From: Chthonomonadia bacterium
GTDB taxonomy: Bacteria; Armatimonadota; HRBIN16
Direction of reading: 5' to 3'
DNA length: 64,000 nucleotides
Assembly (NCBI GenBank): GCA_013314755.1
Contig: JABUFA010000003.1
Coordinates: 1 to 64,000, forward strand
Position 1 is the stretch's first letter; every line of letters starts with the position of its first letter. Position numbers and translations under genes: made by a program. Shown here piece by piece: positions 11,650-21,356 of this stretch. The notes under the pieces are model-generated. The model was not told the origin of the DNA. It ran no database searches and saw nothing but the letters and a program-made list of their open reading frames with translations.

Positions 11650-11678
11650 TTGCAGTGTTACAAATCTTGTGTTATAAT
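11650..11678 (+). promoter_or_regulatory. Sigma70-like promoter TTGCAG-N17-TATAAT
   Basis: Near-consensus boxes with 17 bp spacer, 30 bp upstream of ATG 11708. Confidence 0.75.
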
Positions 11679-11707
11679 AGAACAAACCGTATCGTGGGAG
11701 AGTGAGC

Positions 11708-12768
11708 ATGAAAGCATCAATTGCCATAGCAATCGTGTTCATGTGCTTCTCCAGTCTCCCAGCAACGGGGGGGGTACAGCTCCCTTCGCCGGGCCGTACA
11801 CCTTCGTTAGCCTAAATCTCCAGCAAGATACCGCCACGGACCCCGACAGCTTGCTCCGACAGGCGTACGCCATCAAAAGCGAGGGCAAACGGGAAGAAGC
11901 GCGTTCACTGTTTGAGAAGTTGATGCAGGACTACCCACGCACCGCTGCGGGGGTGGAGGCGCGCTGGATGGTCGCCTACTATCGCCTCAACGACAGGCAG
12001 TTCGACGAGGCGCAGAGGCTGTTCCAGCAGGTGGCAGATGACCCACTGGCAAAACCCGACATCGCAGCGGAGGCGTTGCTGCAAACGGGCTTTGTGTATC
12101 TCTCCCGTTTTTGGGCAGAGCCGCCCGTGTCTGGGGAGGAGCGATACAAGCTTCTGGAGGCGGCAAAGACGCGGCTGCTGCAGATTGCCAAGTACCTTTC
12201 CGCACGCACAGACGAGGTGGCGCGTACCGCGGCAGCCTACGCTTGGCTGGGAGTGGGAGAAGCGTTTTTGTATCAAGGCGACCCGCAAGGGGCAGAACCC
12301 CACTATCGGACGATTGTGGCGATGAAGGAGGGGGTCTCTCCGGTAGTTTTAGCGCAAGCGTGGTATGCGCTGGGCGTCAGCCTGTATCGGCAGCGTCGGT
12401 ATGGCGAGGCGCTGCAGGCGTTCGAGGCGGTGAAGCAATTCGGCGAGTCGGGCGAGGGGATAGTGCTTCGCTCGTTGGCGCTGGGGAACGCGTTGCCGGA
12501 ACGGGCGTGGCTGTGGCAAGGAGCGATTTGGGCACGATTGGGCAATGTGCCACGTTCGGTCGCTGCACTGGAACAGGGATTAGGGCGTCCGGAACGTCTG
12601 GCGGATGCGGGCAATGCAGCGTTATTGGCGCAGGCGCAGCGTTCGCTGACGGCGATGCGTCAGGCATTAGTTCGCCAACAGGAGCGCCAGCAGAGGCTGG
12701 CGGAGTTGCAACGACTGGCACAGCAGTTAGAGCGCAGTAGTGTGTCGGCGGTGCGCACGGTTCGTTAA
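11708..12768 (+). CDS. Secreted TPR-repeat protein; signal peptide and body in different frames across G8 (apparent frameshift)
   Basis: ATG 11708 with upstream GGAGAG reads MKASIAIAIVFMCFSSLPATGG then stops after 35 codons; the body ORF (…GGGTAPFAGPYTFVSLNLQQDTATDPDSLLRQAYAIKSEGK) is in the frame reached by -1 slippage at 11767-11774. Confidence 0.75.
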
Positions 12769-12783
12769 GAGGGAGGGCCACAG

Positions 12784-15700
12784 ATGCGACGTTCAGGTAT
12801 TGTTCTAATACTGACAGGGCTGCTGTTTGGCTTTTGCGCGTTCAGTTGGGGCAAGGCGAACAAGGCGGGCGACCCGCCTCCGGGCGTGGAACCACCACCG
12901 CCGCCGTGGACAGGTTGTTGCCCCTTTGACCCGCCGGGTTGTCCCGTGCCGGATCCTGGGGAGGGAGGCGAACCTCCGGGCGGTGGCGGTACGTGCGCAC
13001 CGGTGGGAGCATATCCGATGTATGCGCCCAGTGCAGGCGACCCTGTGAATCTGGCAGCCGGGGTGGAGGCGTACCGCCCGACAGACGACCTGTTGGTGTA
13101 CAATCCGTATGGTCCGCGTGTGGTATGGCGACGGCATTACTATGGCGGTCTGGCGGCAGGCGACGGTTATAGTTCGCCCGGTTTGCCTGTCGGCTGGGTG
13201 CACTCCTATGACATTACCTTGCAAAACACGGGTGAAAGTTGGGATGTGACGCTGGTCTACCCGTATGGCGCGGCGGAGCCTCTGCAGGCGGAATTGAACG
13301 CGCAAGGGCAACCGACAGGAGTCTTGACCCCTCCGAGTGGTAGCCCCTACCTCGTGCACGGAGTACCATCGCCAACACCGTATGTGTGGCAGTCGGTGAC
13401 CATCACCTGGCGCGATCAGACGCAGTGGACGTTCGTGCCTCTCAACGGCAATGTATATGTTTTGAGTGCGATTACCAACCGCGTCGGACGTTCAGTTACC
13501 CTCACATGGGATGCAGGGCGTCGGCTGCTACGGGTGACGGAGGCGGGAAGCGGCATGGTGTTGTTAAGCCTGACCTACAATGCCCAGAACCTGGTGGCTT
13601 CGGTTACCGATGCGTATGGTCGTCAGGTGTCTTACCAGTATTCAGTTCCCGCCAATCTATCGGTGCTGTGCCTGACGTGGGTGTCACAGGTGGTGCCAGC
13701 AGGTACTCCGAACCCACCAATGCGCTATTCTTATGGATATGTGGCGTATGGTACGGATAAGCCACTGCTTTCCAGCATTACCGTGCCCAGTCCTACCGGT
13801 ATGGGAAGCGCGACCTCCACGTTGCAATACAGCAACGGACGCGTAGTGGCGCGGGTAGACGCCAGCGGCAATCGCACAGAGTACCAATATGACCTTACGG
13901 GACAAGCAACGACGGTGACGGTCAAAGACCCAGCGGGTAACTTGGTATACCGGTGGATACAGAAGTATACCGGCTCCCGCTGCAACGCGGGCACCGTAGA
14001 CGCACTGGGCAACCAGAGCACCGTCGAGTATAACGACCCCGCGAACCCGTATCGGCCCACGCGCATTGTGGACCGGGATGGTAAGCAGACCACCTACACC
14101 TACGATGCGTACGGCAACGTACTGACGGTGACCAACCCGCGGGGCGTCACGACCACCTACACCTACGACTACTCGGCCTTCCCACTCGGACGTCTGGTAC
14201 AGGTGCAGGAGGGTAGCAAGCCGCCCACCACCTATACCTACTACGAGCCATCGGGTTTGGTGCAGAGCGTGACCTCGCCCAAGCCGGGTTCAGTGAACGG
14301 GGAGACGGTGACTACCAGCTACACGTATGATGCACTGGGCAATGTGTTAACGGTGACGGCGCCGGGCAACAACGCGACGCCGCTGATGGTGACCACCTAC
14401 AACTACACGCAGGACGGCAGTTACACACAGCCTGCCAAAGTAGGGCAGCCCCTGACGGTGACGGACAATCTGGGCAATGTCACGCACTACCGGTACGATG
14501 CGCGGGGCAACCGCACGGTGGTGATAGACGCCAACGGCAACCGCACGGACTTTGCCTACAACATCGCCGACCAGCTGGCGGAGGTGCAGTATCCGGCGAC
14601 CGGTCAGCAAGGCAGCGGGCGGGCGCGCACGCAAAACGTGTATCTGTATGCGGGTGGGCCGCTGCGACAGGTGCTGGAGTTTGACGAGAGCGGCACCCAA
14701 ATCCGGCAGGTGACTTACACCTACGGGGCAGAGGGGCAGTTGCTACAGCGCACGGGCAGCACGGAGGTGGTCAGTTACGTCTATGATGCCGCTTATCGGG
14801 TGGTCCAGGTGCGCGATGGGAAGGGCAATGCCACGTCGTTCGCGTACAACCTGCGCGGCGATTTGTTGCAAATCACCTATCCGGGTGGGGATAGCGTGCA
14901 GTTTGCGTATGACGCCGCCGGGCGCGTGGTGCAACGGAGGGATGGACGAGGTATCTTGACCAACTATGTGTATAACGACCCCGAAGGGCTGTTGACCGGC
15001 ATCGAGTATCCGGCTTACCCTGCGCTGAACGTGAGTTTCACGTATGACTCCGATGGTCGACGAGCGAGCATGACCGACGCTACAGGGATAACCACCTACA
15101 GTTACGACCATGTGGGCAACCTGTTGAGCGTAAGCGTGACCTATGCGGGCTTGCCGACGCGGGTCATCACCTACAGTTACTATCCGGATGGCAGTCGGGC
15201 AACCATGAGTACTCCAGCGGGCACGTATACCCACAGTTATGACGCCGCTGGTCGCCTCGTGGGGCTAAGCGCACTGGGTTGGAGCGCGAGCTGGACCTAC
15301 GCGCCCAACGGCTGGCTGTTGACTCAGACGCTGAACGGGGCAAGTACGACATACGAGTATAATGCGCGCGGCTTCTTAACCCGCTTGACCAACCGCGACG
15401 CCAGGGGCAATGTACTGTCGGACTTCCAGAACCTGCGTTACGACGGGGTGGGCAACCGCACGCAGATGACGGTGTCGTTCCCCGCCATGCCCAGTTTGGG
15501 AGGGGTGACCAACTACAGTTACGACACCAAGAACCAGTTACTGCAGGAGCAGTCCACACGGGTGGGAGGCTACACCTTCACCTTCGTTTACGACCCTGCA
15601 CAAAACCCGACGCAGTTCAAGGGGCAGTCTCGCACTTACAACGCGAACAACCAGCTCATCGGTGCGGGCTTTGCGTATGACGGCAACGGCAACCCGGTGC

Positions 15701-16638
15701 TGTATAAGGGCGTGAACCTGTCGTTTGACGCCGAGAACCGGATGACCGCTTATGGGAACATCCTCACTGCCGGTTACAACGGGGACGGCTTGCGCGCATG
15801 GAAACAGACGGCGTCGGGCAGGAGGTATTATCTGTATGACGGCGAAGAGTTAGTGTGTGAGCTGGACGCGGCGGGCAACCCCGTGGCAGGGGTAGTGTTT
15901 GGGGCGAACGGCTTGCTGGTGTATGGCGCCACCGGCTACCAGTTTGACCCGCAGGGCAACGCCACGCACCTGATGGACGATGACGGTTTGGTGGTAGCGC
16001 ACCTTGCCTACGATGCGTGGGGTCAGCGCATGTCTGGTAATAACCCGACACCATACGGCTACAAAGGACAGTGGGGCTACTACACGGACGGAGAGACAGG
16101 TCTACTGCTTCTAACGCACCGTTACCTTGACCCCGCGACAGGGCGGTTTTTGACCCGAGACCCGATTGGGGTGGAGGGTGGGATTAATCTGTATGCGTAT
16201 GTGGGCAATGGGGTGGTTATCGGAAGCGACCGTTCGGGCTTGAAATTAGAGTTTTGCACGCGACCGGTAGGGCCTTGCGATCAGCACAACGCCAAGTTTT
16301 GTCATTGGTTCTTTGCCAGCACCGAATGTGGGTGTGTTGGATATGGTCCACAAGGGCCACATGATGACTGTTCGGAACACTTTGGCAAAAAAGAGCACTG
16401 GTGTAAGCGAGTTAACACCACCCCGTCTCAAGAGCGGTGCATCTGCGAGAATTTCAGGAACGCCCAGAAAGGATGGAAAATGTGTGGTGAACAGTGGCTC
16501 CCTAAAGGCGGCAAGGAAGGTGCTTATAATTGGCTCGACCATAACTGTCAGCACTTTATCATCTGCTTAGCTAGAAAGTGCGGAGTAAAGTATCCATTTC
16601 CGCCCTCGTTAACACCTTATCATCCAAAGGTATATTGA
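12784..16638 (+). CDS. Secreted RHS/YD-repeat protein with RHS core and Cys-rich variable C-terminal domain
   Basis: Signal peptide; many YD repeats (YDAAGRVV, YDALGNVLTV); RHS core YGYKGQWGYYTDGETGLLLLTHRYLDPATGRFLTRDPIG; unique approx. 140 aa C-terminus with 13 Cys and NCQHF. Confidence 0.93.
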   Translation: MRRSGIVLILTGLLFGFCAFSWGKANKAGDPPPGVEPPPPPWTGCCPFDPPGCPVPDPGEGGEPPGGGGTCAPVGAYPMYAPSAGDPVNLAAGVEAYRPTDDLLVYNPYGPRVVWRRHYYGGLAAGDGYSSPGLPVGWVHSYDITLQNTGESWDVTLVYPYGAAEPLQAELNAQGQPTGVLTPPSGSPYLVHGVPSPTPYVWQSVTITWRDQTQWTFVPLNGNVYVLSAITNRVGRSVTLTWDAGRRLLRVTEAGSGMVLLSLTYNAQNLVASVTDAYGRQVSYQYSVPANLSVLCLTWVSQVVPAGTPNPPMRYSYGYVAYGTDKPLLSSITVPSPTGMGSATSTLQYSNGRVVARVDASGNRTEYQYDLTGQATTVTVKDPAGNLVYRWIQKYTGSRCNAGTVDALGNQSTVEYNDPANPYRPTRIVDRDGKQTTYTYDAYGNVLTVTNPRGVTTTYTYDYSAFPLGRLVQVQEGSKPPTTYTYYEPSGLVQSVTSPKPGSVNGETVTTSYTYDALGNVLTVTAPGNNATPLMVTTYNYTQDGSYTQPAKVGQPLTVTDNLGNVTHYRYDARGNRTVVIDANGNRTDFAYNIADQLAEVQYPATGQQGSGRARTQNVYLYAGGPLRQVLEFDESGTQIRQVTYTYGAEGQLLQRTGSTEVVSYVYDAAYRVVQVRDGKGNATSFAYNLRGDLLQITYPGGDSVQFAYDAAGRVVQRRDGRGILTNYVYNDPEGLLTGIEYPAYPALNVSFTYDSDGRRASMTDATGITTYSYDHVGNLLSVSVTYAGLPTRVITYSYYPDGSRATMSTPAGTYTHSYDAAGRLVGLSALGWSASWTYAPNGWLLTQTLNGASTTYEYNARGFLTRLTNRDARGNVLSDFQNLRYDGVGNRTQMTVSFPAMPSLGGVTNYSYDTKNQLLQEQSTRVGGYTFTFVYDPAQNPTQFKGQSRTYNANNQLIGAGFAYDGNGNPVLYKGVNLSFDAENRMTAYGNILTAGYNGDGLRAWKQTASGRRYYLYDGEELVCELDAAGNPVAGVVFGANGLLVYGATGYQFDPQGNATHLMDDDGLVVAHLAYDAWGQRMSGNNPTPYGYKGQWGYYTDGETGLLLLTHRYLDPATGRFLTRDPIGVEGGINLYAYVGNGVVIGSDRSGLKLEFCTRPVGPCDQHNAKFCHWFFASTECGCVGYGPQGPHDDCSEHFGKKEHWCKRVNTTPSQERCICENFRNAQKGWKMCGEQWLPKGGKEGAYNWLDHNCQHFIICLARKCGVKYPFPPSLTPYHPKVY

Positions 16639-17645: not shown

Positions 17646-18305
17646 ATGAACAACACGCGATACGGCTACAAAGGGCAGTGGGGTTACTACACCGACGGGG
17701 AGACAGGACTGCTGTTACTGACGCACCGTTACTTAGACCCCGCGACAGGAAGGTTTTTGACCCGAGACCCGGTGGGGTTTGACGGGGGAATCAATCTGTA
17801 TGCGTATGTGAGGAATGGGGTGGTGATGGGAAGCGACCCGGCTGGCTTGCACAATAAAGACAAGTGTTTCGAAGCCATCCGAGAGGCGCGCGAACTGGCA
17901 GATAAAATTGAGGAACACTTACAGAAAATAAGAGATAACCTGCCATCCATGGCTGGACTGTGTATTCCCAACGAGCTTTGTGCTGCTCTTCCCCGAAGAC
18001 CTGCCGATAAGACGCTGTTTGAAAAATGGGAAGAGTATCGGGGGCATGTGCGGGACGTAGAGGGCTTGAAACGTACACTAGAAGAGGAACCAAGAAAGAT
18101 AGACAATAACTGTAACAATCATTGGAAAAACTACTTCGGGGCGGAAATCAAGTATTTCCAAAGTGTCCTGATTGCACCCGTCCCTGAAGGGTCTGGCGGC
18201 GTATTCCCTTGCATTCCACTACCGGACATGAGAGTGCCTCGTGTGCCCCTGCCACGTCCGGTGCCAATCCGCCCACCGATGATTGTGCCAGTCTCGTTGC
18301 GCTGA
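17646..18305 (+). CDS. Orphan RHS core tip with alternative C-terminal domain (Rhs-CT cassette)
   Basis: Begins MNNTRYGYKGQWGYYTDGETGLLLLTHRYLDPATGRFLTRDPVGFDGGINLYAYVRNGVVMGSDPAGL, near-identical to 16.05-16.24 kb, then unrelated helical/Pro-rich C-terminus. Confidence 0.85.
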   Translation: MNNTRYGYKGQWGYYTDGETGLLLLTHRYLDPATGRFLTRDPVGFDGGINLYAYVRNGVVMGSDPAGLHNKDKCFEAIREARELADKIEEHLQKIRDNLPSMAGLCIPNELCAALPRRPADKTLFEKWEEYRGHVRDVEGLKRTLEEEPRKIDNNCNNHWKNYFGAEIKYFQSVLIAPVPEGSGGVFPCIPLPDMRVPRVPLPRPVPIRPPMIVPVSLR

Positions 18306-19093: not shown

Positions 19094-19135
19094 GGTATCA
19101 TATATCCAGCAGAGGCGGTTGTGCATTCGGAGGGA

Positions 19136-19378
19136 ATGATGAGCACTTCTACTTGGCAGGAGCGCATCGTGATTGACCCCAGCATCTGTCACGGCAAGCC
19201 GGTCATTCGCGGGTTGCGTTATCCCGTGGAGACCATTCTGGAACTGATGGCTTCGGGGATGACCTTTGAGCAGATACTGGAGGACTATCCCGACCTCGAG
19301 CGTGAGGACCTGGTGGCGTGCCTGCAGTATGCGGTGAAGATGGTGCGCACGGAGCAGTTACAGGAACTGGTGCGATGA
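19136..19378 (+). CDS. DUF433 domain antitoxin-like protein
   Basis: IVIDPSICHGKPVIRGLRYPVETILELMASGMTFEQILEDYPDLEREDLVACLQYA. Confidence 0.92.
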   Translation: MMSTSTWQERIVIDPSICHGKPVIRGLRYPVETILELMASGMTFEQILEDYPDLEREDLVACLQYAVKMVRTEQLQELVR

Positions 19379-19728
19379 GGTTTCTGGTCGACGCGCAGCT
19401 ACCCCGAAGGTTGGCGTCCTTCTTGCAGCAGGCGGGGCACGAGGCAATACACACTCTGGATTTGCCCGAGGGGAACCGCACCCCAGATGAGGAGATAGAG
19501 GCTACCTCACGGGAGCAACACGCTGTGCTGGTCACCAAAGACAGAGGCTTCATCCACCATCTTGCGCTCGGAACAGGGGCGTACAAACTGCTGTTGATAA
19601 GCACTCGTAATATCAGTAACGATGAATTACTGTCTCTGTTTGTTGGACATCTTGCCGATGTGGAGATGGCATTGCAGGGGCATGCATTTGTGGAATTGAC
19701 GCGCGAGCGGTTGATTGTTCATTGGTAA
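19375..19728 (+). CDS. DUF5615 PIN-like toxin-family protein
   Basis: MRFLVDAQLPRRLASFLQQAGHEAIHTLDLPEGNRTPDEEI...VLVTKDRGF; ATGA overlap with DUF433 gene. Confidence 0.92.
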   Translation: MRFLVDAQLPRRLASFLQQAGHEAIHTLDLPEGNRTPDEEIEATSREQHAVLVTKDRGFIHHLALGTGAYKLLLISTRNISNDELLSLFVGHLADVEMALQGHAFVELTRERLIVHW

Positions 19729-19908: not shown

Positions 19909-20021
19909 ACGTGCTAATCTTTCCCCGAAAAGCGATACGGCGAGCAACAACTGCCGGTAGGTCTTCTAGAAGAACACGCTCGCTATTTGTCCTCATCTAG
20001 GTGAAGAAAGGAGTGATTGCC

Positions 20022-21356
20022 ATGCGTTCACGAACGGCACTTTTGGCTTTTGCACTGCTGCTCGCGTGTGCCCTCGTATCGGCACAACGCAAGTACGACT
20101 TCGTGATGTCCCCAGCCGATTCCAACCTGAACGTGCGCGTATCGGTGCAAGCGTTGACGTCCGGCACGTTGGTGGGCAACTACGACCCCAACACCAACCC
20201 CACCGGCACGCGTACCAAGCCGGGCATCTTCGGTAGCTTTGGTCCCACCGAGAACGTGCCCGTGCCGGTCGAAGTCAACCCGTCTGTGGAGGGGAATGTG
20301 GCTTCAAAACCGGCAGGCTCCTTCAGCATGGTGTTGAACCCGGAAGCGGGCACGGTGGTGCTGATGGACTACTTCTCTGACCTGCTTCATTCGGGTGCAG
20401 TCAGCCTGCCCGCCAGCGCGGAGTTCGCCACCGACGGCTTTCGTACGCGCGACCCGACCTCTACCTATCCAGCCGGACGGTTCACGGTACCGCTGGGCGA
20501 TGTGCTGGTCTCCGCGCTGACCATCACGCAAACGGGCGACCCCGTCGTGGGAACGCTGGCACCGCTGGGGGGCAACCGCTACGCCTTTGCCGTCGCGCCG
20601 ACGGTGGTGCTGTTTATCCACGCTGAAATGCAGGGCTACGTGCTGGAGACCACCTCCAACCCCAACCCGCTACCCCTTGTCGGAGAGGTGCAGATCGACG
20701 GTGACACCGCGACCATCCTCTCGGTGAACACCATCGACTGGTCGGACGTGGATACTCCGAATCAGCCCATCCCGCAATTCGCAATGGACTTACCGACCGT
20801 GTTCCCGCCGGGTGATGTGGCGCACCTGCTGTTTGACCTCACGCTGAATGAGGTGCGCACGCGCGTGAGCGGCACCTACACCATCGCCGCCAGCGGAGCG
20901 GCGGTCTATCGGACGGTCAGTGGTGTCGTCGCGCTCGGCGATTACGCCGCGCCGACCGGCGGGATGAACATACCCATCGAGGTGCGCGCCCCCGGTGATG
21001 TCACGCCGCTGGAAACACATCTGGTTGCGCTCAACGATGCAGGCGAGTATCAGTTCCAGACGGCATTGTGGGGCAGCTTTGACCTTTCCGCAAAGGGTTC
21101 GCACTGGCTGAGGCAGACAGCAGGAGGAATCTCCTTAGAGAAGAACGTACAGGTAGACTTTGTGCTGACCAACGGCGATATCGACGGCGATAACGAGGTC
21201 ACCCTGTTTGACTTCGGACAGCTGGTGTCTGCGTTCGGTACGATGCCGGGCGACATCGGATGGAACCCCAATGCCGACCTGGACGGGGACGAGGAGGTAA
21301 CGCTGTTTGATTTCGGCGTGCTGGTCAGGAACTTTGGAGCGATAGGAGATGAGTAA
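20022..21356 (+). CDS. Secreted protein with C-terminal dockerin-like repeats
   Basis: Signal peptide MRSRTALLAFALLLACALVSA; duplicated DIDGDNEVTLFDFGQLVSAFG / DLDGDEEVTLFDFGVLVRNFG. Confidence 0.85.
   Translation: MRSRTALLAFALLLACALVSAQRKYDFVMSPADSNLNVRVSVQALTSGTLVGNYDPNTNPTGTRTKPGIFGSFGPTENVPVPVEVNPSVEGNVASKPAGSFSMVLNPEAGTVVLMDYFSDLLHSGAVSLPASAEFATDGFRTRDPTSTYPAGRFTVPLGDVLVSALTITQTGDPVVGTLAPLGGNRYAFAVAPTVVLFIHAEMQGYVLETTSNPNPLPLVGEVQIDGDTATILSVNTIDWSDVDTPNQPIPQFAMDLPTVFPPGDVAHLLFDLTLNEVRTRVSGTYTIAASGAAVYRTVSGVVALGDYAAPTGGMNIPIEVRAPGDVTPLETHLVALNDAGEYQFQTALWGSFDLSAKGSHWLRQTAGGISLEKNVQVDFVLTNGDIDGDNEVTLFDFGQLVSAFGTMPGDIGWNPNADLDGDEEVTLFDFGVLVRNFGAIGDE

What the first reader, a model, noticed from the sequence alone, without database searches (positions are those of the whole stretch)
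11650..11830. Signal peptide and mature TPR protein are in different frames across a G8 tract
A near-consensus promoter (TTGCAG-N17-TATAAT, 11650-11678) and RBS point to ATG 11708, which encodes MKASIAIAIVFMCFSSLPATGG and then stops after 35 codons. The long TPR ORF is open in the frame reached by a -1 shift at G8 (11767-11774). The ORF-track start at 11650 lies inside the -35 box and has no signal peptide. One extra G would give a clean secreted TPR protein immediately upstream of the Rhs gene. Explanations are phase variation by G-tract slippage, programmed frameshifting, or an assembly error.
Basis: partly seen in the sequence, partly recalled or inferred. Interest (0 to 1): 0.7.

Follow-up and report, generated by a model that had tools for sequence, protein, structure and literature searches.

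The report
Poly-G switch ahead of Rhs gene
A run of eight Gs puts the export signal and body of a secreted repeat protein out of frame, and the same run recurs with other lengths at the same spot in related genes, so this hot-spring bacterium most likely turns many of its secreted proteins on and off by copying slips at G runs.

Summary
In detail: ATG 11708 opens a 35-codon signal-peptide frame, and the 330-residue TPR frame continues in another phase across G8 (11767-11774). It is not a lone frameshift. All nine copies of this TPR gene in five related genomes (Armatimonadota, class HRBIN16, hot springs) carry a pure G run at exactly this point, with 6, 8, 9 or 10 Gs. Six are in phase; three (the window's G8 and two G10) are not. 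Out-of-phase copies are still under purifying selection (dN/dS about 0.07-0.13), and the G run is the only indel in the gene against the closest copy in another genome. Every copy heads an operon with a full-length Rhs gene. In this genome and four relatives, runs of 8 or more Gs sit far more often than shorter runs either at signal peptides (several Rhs families, dockerin-like proteins, small secreted proteins) or between -35 and -10 of promoters (spacer 15-18), with length differences at matching sites. Best explanation: slipped-strand phase variation, with the window's assembly showing an OFF phase. The mechanism is known from Neisseria and Bifidobacterium; the lineage and the Rhs targets appear new. 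Read-level polymorphism could not be tested.

The parts
11650..11678 (+). Promoter: TTGCAG-17 nt-TATAAT
   Evidence: Sequence; the aligned position in L006/L007 is TTGACA-17-TATAAT and in L004 TTGCAA-17-TATAAT. The -35 matches consensus at 3 of 6 only.
11696..11702 (+). Ribosome-binding site GGGAGAG
   Evidence: Sequence, 5 nt upstream of ATG 11708; inference.
11708..11815 (+). Signal-peptide frame, 35 codons, ends at TAA 11813-11815 in the assembled (out-of-phase) state
   Evidence: Translation; homologous signal peptides in all nine copies.
11767..11774 (+). G8 tract, the proposed slippage switch
   Evidence: Only G8 in the window; same-site tract in homologues: G6, G9 (five copies), G10 (two copies).
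11776..12768 (+). Mature TPR protein, 330 residues after the tract, stop 12766-12768
   Evidence: Pfam TPR_2, TPR_6, TPR_16; weak partial similarity to YbgF and BamD; dN/dS about 0.07-0.13 across homologues.
12784..16638 (+). Full-length Rhs (YD-repeat) gene, 1284 aa, own signal peptide, directly downstream
   Evidence: RHS_repeat 8.8e-65, Rhs_assc_core 3.9e-18; an Rhs gene follows the TPR gene in all nine copies.
16240..16635 (+). Variable C-terminal tail of the Rhs protein after the core domain
   Evidence: Gap-rich alignment to the G001 copy from 16240 on; core domain ends at residue 1153, about nt 16242.
17646..18305 (+). Orphan Rhs C-terminal cassette (YGYKGQWGYYTDGETGLLLLTHRYLDPATGRFLTRDPVG... 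plus a different tail)
   Evidence: Translation; similar cassettes follow other copies.

Best explanation
The G8 tract is a contingency (phase-variation) switch. The poly-G run lies at the junction of signal peptide and mature protein of the first gene of a TPR-Rhs operon. Slipped-strand mispairing during replication adds or removes Gs. Lengths that keep the signal peptide in phase give an exported TPR protein (ON); other lengths stop translation after about 35 codons (OFF) and may also lower expression of the downstream Rhs gene through polarity. The window's assembly shows an OFF phase. The same device recurs across this lineage at other secreted-protein genes, as poly-G or poly-C in or next to signal peptides and as poly-G spacers between promoter -35 and -10 boxes. 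Shown: tract, phases, conservation of place but not length, selection on the mature frame, operon structure, enrichment of long G runs at switch-like positions. Inferred: slippage in living populations, effect on expression, polarity on Rhs, role in varying secreted or surface proteins.
For: (1) Nine homologues in five genomes all have a pure G run at the same point, of length 6, 8, 9 or 10; six in phase, three out. The two copies in this genome (67% identical) are G8 and G10. (2) The mature frame is open and under purifying selection in all copies, including out-of-phase ones (dN/dS 0.13 for L006 G10 against L007 G9; 0.12 for the window G8 against L004 G6). (3) The tract is the only indel in the TPR gene up to its last few codons between window and L004 at dS 0.92, and the only frame-changing indel in the coding part of the 4-kb L006/L007 comparison. 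(4) Runs of G>=8 meet a signal-peptide or promoter-spacer rule in 12 of 21 cases in this genome and 36 of 62 in four relatives, against 9/417 (G5), 8/120 (G6), 3/36 (G7). (5) Same-site length differences in other families: Rhs family G8/9/10/13, second Rhs family G9/10/18, dockerin-Rhs family C9/10/11, promoter spacer G9/10/11. (6) GGG is not a preferred Gly codon (43 of 145 in this family) and some tracts are non-coding, so amino-acid needs do not explain them.
Against: No read-level or within-population polymorphism could be examined; each genome gives one consensus length. G8 is at the low end for slippage (a Neisseria survey used G>=9, PMC5953494). MutS is present, so slippage is not raised by loss of mismatch repair. 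The switch rule was written after seeing examples, and family members are not independent, so the p-values are too small. More distant genus members show little enrichment (3 of 19). No expression data.
Confidence: 0.82

Rival explanations
1. Assembly or sequencing error: the true tract here is in phase and the window's G8 is a miscount.
For: Homopolymer lengths are error-prone; for a bifidobacterial G-tract the deposited length differed from the commonest length in culture (PMC9187656). All signal-peptide-type poly-G copies of families F1, F2 and F4 seen in this genome are out of phase.
Against: The same assembly contains G9 and G10 tracts elsewhere, so it does not simply collapse long runs. 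Length differences recur in five separate assemblies and at many families. An error explains neither the conserved place of the tract nor promoter-spacer tracts.
Confidence: 0.1
2. Programmed ribosomal frameshifting or RNA-polymerase slippage on the G run makes the fusion protein constitutively from out-of-phase templates.
For: A G run is slippery, and the downstream frame is kept open and under selection although out of phase.
Against: The phase is not conserved: copies need no shift (G6, G9), or a shift one way (G8) or the other (G10). Downstream RNA is no more structured than shuffled sequence (z 0.46, 0.12, -0.51). Promoter-spacer tracts have no frame to shift. Low-level transcript slippage on top of phase variation is not excluded.
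Confidence: 0.06
3. Decaying gene: a fixed frameshift in a pseudogene.
For: One or two bases out of phase at a homopolymer is a common way to lose a gene.
Against: 330 codons stay open with dN/dS about 0.1, no other frameshift, intact promoter and downstream Rhs; out-of-phase copies occur in more than one genome, one of them next to a near-identical in-phase copy in another genome.
Confidence: 0.03
4. The real start lies downstream of the tract, giving a cytoplasmic TPR protein; the upstream frame is not used.
For: ATG 11923 and 11968, GTG 11953 and TTG 11851 lie in the TPR frame.
Against: None has a good ribosome-binding site; all lie inside or after conserved residues; every homologue keeps the signal peptide, and where the tract is in phase it is fused.
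Confidence: 0.03

Closest known systems
Bifidobacterium breve sortase-pilus operons with an intragenic G-tract (PMC9187656)
   Same: G10-G11 tract in the first gene of an operon for a surface structure; length sets whether two frames fuse; G9 allows fusion at one locus; polarity on downstream genes is expected.
   Different: Slippage there was measured by deep sequencing; targets are pili in a gut actinobacterium, not TPR-Rhs operons in a hot-spring armatimonadote.
Neisseria phasome: poly-G/C translational and promoter switches (PMC5953494)
   Same: Many poly-G tracts per genome (about 15-19), modal length 9-10, both within reading frames and in promoter regions, acting on surface proteins.
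   Different: Different phylum and lifestyle; Neisseria also uses longer repeat units; here several Rhs families are among the targets.
5' homopolymeric tracts as a general gene-inactivation device (PMC2831843)
   Same: Homopolymers near gene starts that allow reversible inactivation.
   Different: That survey found mostly poly-A/T; poly-C/G was generally under-represented, with few exceptions.
Rhs / polymorphic toxin loci with orphan C-terminal cassettes
   Same: YD repeats, Rhs core domain, variable C-terminus, downstream orphan cassettes.
   Different: A TPR gene with a poly-G switch precedes the Rhs gene; other Rhs families here carry the tract in their own signal-peptide region.

Membership tests
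Simple-sequence-repeat phase variation (contingency locus) | Homopolymer at a position where length gates translation or transcription | tested here: met
   Signal-peptide junction in F1; promoter spacers in F5 and F6.
Simple-sequence-repeat phase variation (contingency locus) | Tract length differs between close relatives at the same site | tested here: met
   G6/8/9/10 in F1; other families likewise.
Simple-sequence-repeat phase variation (contingency locus) | Gene kept functional by selection although out of phase in some genomes | tested here: met
   dN/dS about 0.07-0.13, open frame.
Simple-sequence-repeat phase variation (contingency locus) | Reversible, high-frequency length change within a clonal population | not testable with these tools
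   No reads; one consensus per species.
Simple-sequence-repeat phase variation (contingency locus) | Expression of the gene follows tract length | not testable with these tools
   Needs reporter, RNA or proteomics.
Programmed ribosomal frameshifting | Conserved phase between upstream and downstream frames | tested here: not met
   Phases 0, -1 and +1 all occur among homologues.
Programmed ribosomal frameshifting | Stimulatory RNA structure just downstream | tested here: not met
   z-scores 0.46, 0.12, -0.51; pseudoknots were not modelled.
Rhs polymorphic toxin operon | RHS/YD repeats and Rhs-associated core domain | tested here: met
Rhs polymorphic toxin operon | Variable C-terminal tail after a conserved core, with orphan cassettes | tested here: met
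Rhs polymorphic toxin operon | C-terminal toxicity and cognate immunity protein | not tested
   No family match for the next gene.

The most novel reading that the evidence does not exclude
A whole phasome in an uncultured hot-spring lineage: a group within Armatimonadota class HRBIN16 uses poly-G/poly-C slippage in two forms, signal-peptide frame switches and promoter-spacer switches, to vary a repertoire of secreted Rhs, TPR, dockerin-like and small cysteine-rich proteins cell by cell, probably for interactions within dense mats.
Probability: 0.6. Interest if true: 0.7.

Novelty: new member of a known kind. Interest (0 to 1): 0.58.

Why it matters
Phase variation by G-tract slippage is known mainly from host-adapted bacteria, where it is usually tied to host interaction. 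A comparable set of switches in free-living hot-spring bacteria, several of them on Rhs operons, points to other pressures such as competition, phage or kin discrimination in mats, and makes that question testable from existing metagenome reads. It also warns that consensus assemblies will annotate these genes as broken or with wrong starts.

Tried and rejected
The genome-contig scan found the TPR family only in Bacterium HR16 (the same record as G002) and one distant TPR hit. A first alignment mixed strands and was redone. Count statistics alone were rejected as evidence, since shuffles predict more G8 runs than seen. RNA folding gave no frameshift signal. Loss of MutS was considered and rejected. 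Papers combining phase variation with Armatimonadota or Armatimonadetes: none in the held library. A MafB paper and a Burkholderia paper were checked for phase-variable Rhs or polymorphic toxins; no such case was found in the passages read.

Full report
The observation. The window carries TTGCAG-N17-TATAAT at 11650-11678, GGGAGAG at 11696-11702, ATG 11708, and a pure G8 at 11767-11774. The ATG frame encodes MKASIAIAIVFMCFSSLPATGG and stops at 11813 after 35 codons. The TPR frame runs in the phase reached by a -1 shift, is open from 11608, and ends at 12768. The ORF-track start TTG 11650 is the -35 hexamer. The -35 matches consensus at only 3 of 6 positions, but homologues have TTGACA-17-TATAAT at the aligned place. 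A G8 as such is not rarer than chance: shuffles predict about four in the window.

Where it comes from. The window lies in a 3.95-Mb, 88-contig genome. A relative in the same genus, G002, matches the public record Bacterium HR16 (HRbin16), contig BEHS01000021.1. HRBIN16 is reported as an Armatimonadota class found in hot springs (PMC11071339, PMC11788075).

The homologues. Strong homologues exist in five of ten genus genomes: two in this genome, one in G001, one in G002, four in G003, one in G005. All nine have a signal peptide followed at the same point by a G run and then TACA. Lengths are G8 and G10 (this genome), G6 (G001), G9 (four in G003, one in G005) and G10 (G002). G6 and G9 are in phase; G8 and G10 are not. 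Two of the G003 copies and the G005 copy are identical in the mature coding region, so the number of independent observations is smaller than nine. The public HR16 record shows the same G10. Three out-of-phase states, in two directions, alongside in-phase copies, fit a switch and do not fit a programmed frameshift, which would conserve the phase. Predicted downstream RNA structure is no stronger than in shuffles.

Selection and indels. dN/dS is about 0.07-0.13 for all pairs where dS is not saturated, including out-of-phase copies. Between the window and the G001 copy (dS 0.92) the only indel in the TPR gene, up to its last few codons, is the two-base difference in the G run. Between G002 (G10) and G005 (G9) the only frame-changing indel in the coding part of about 4 kb is again the tract. 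The gene is therefore not decaying.

The operon. In every copy a full-length Rhs gene follows directly, then variable cassettes, several with Rhs-like C-termini. In the window the Rhs protein has RHS repeats and the Rhs-associated core, and its tail after the core aligns poorly to the G001 copy, as expected of polymorphic Rhs loci. Premature termination in the first gene may reduce Rhs expression by polarity; this is inference.

A wider set. G000 has 67 runs of exactly G7 but only 21 of G8 or more, 9 of them G9 or more and 4 G10. I retrieved all 21, and the regions of most long runs in the other genus genomes. Besides the TPR family (F1), recurring families are: F2, Rhs genes with signal peptide MLRRFP..., tract G8 (three copies), G9, G10 (several), G13; F3, Rhs genes, G9, G10, G18; F4, small secreted cysteine-rich proteins, G9 and G10; F8, dockerin-like proteins with poly-C in the n-region, C7 to C10; F9, dockerin-like plus weak Rhs matches, C9, C10, C11; F5 and F6, poly-G inside the spacer of TTGAC(A/G)/TAGAAT-type promoters, G8 to G11, giving spacers of 15-18 nt, ahead of secreted proteins. 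A rule for signal-peptide switch or promoter spacer is met by 12 of 21 tracts here and 36 of 62 in G001, G002, G003 and G005, against 9 of 417 G5, 8 of 120 G6 and 3 of 36 G7 runs. Caveats: the rule was made after seeing examples, some hits are doubtful (L077 lies in an ordinary coding region), and members of a family are not independent. Collapsed to families, this genome still has six different switch-like families among its 21 tracts. More distant genus members show little of it (3 of 19).

Mechanism. Best reading: replication slippage at the tract toggles export of the TPR protein, as shown for G-tracts in Bifidobacterium breve pilus operons (PMC9187656) and surveyed in Neisseria (PMC5953494). 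MutS is present. What is shown is the anatomy, the cross-genome length variation and the selection; switching within a population and its effect on expression are inferred. The window's G8 is read as an OFF state, with the caution that a consensus assembly can miscount a homopolymer. The same assembly does contain G9 and G10 tracts, so it does not collapse all long runs.

Novelty. The mechanism is known. No paper in the held library joins phase variation with Armatimonadota or Armatimonadetes; that library lacks most subscription papers, so this is weak evidence of novelty. The combination of both switch types with several Rhs families in a hot-spring lineage looks new.

Noticed in passing
L066, L068, L078, L094, L095, L098, L099, L113, L123, L125, L136, L137: A repeated cassette: a LuxR-type HTH coding end (GerE match in L078) running into a promoter whose -35/-10 spacer is a G9-G11 run, followed by different small secreted proteins; looks like a transcriptional phase-variable family.
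   Followed up: partly
L072, L092, L093, L119, L133: G9 runs at the 3' end of sigma-factor genes; in L072 the sigma-factor frame reads through the run into a downstream region with a membrane-protein-like start. Possible switch of the sigma factor C-terminus or of coupling.
   Followed up: partly
L122 (G003:C3 about 903867-903884): An 18-G run at the signal peptide of an Rhs family gene, the longest tract seen; the frame directly after it is short in this copy.
   Followed up: no
L084, L085, L087: The TPR-Rhs region of G003:C1 and G005:C3 differs by 1 substitution over about 4 kb (98.9% over 11.6 kb), although other copies diverge more; suggests recent transfer or close strains. G003:C9 is a near-identical duplicate of part of C1.
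   Followed up: partly
G000:C50 end, G000:C65 start, G001:C27 end, G001:C62 start: Contigs end within 6-13 bases of a long G run of families F2 or F10, perhaps because repeat copies or tract-length polymorphism broke the assembly.
   Followed up: no
window 19121-19728: DUF433 gene followed by a DUF5615 PIN-like gene, a typical toxin-antitoxin-like pair.
   Followed up: partly
window 20001-21356: Secreted protein with a C-terminal dockerin-like repeat (weak Pfam match), resembling the N-terminal repeats of the poly-C-switched F8 and F9 proteins.
   Followed up: partly
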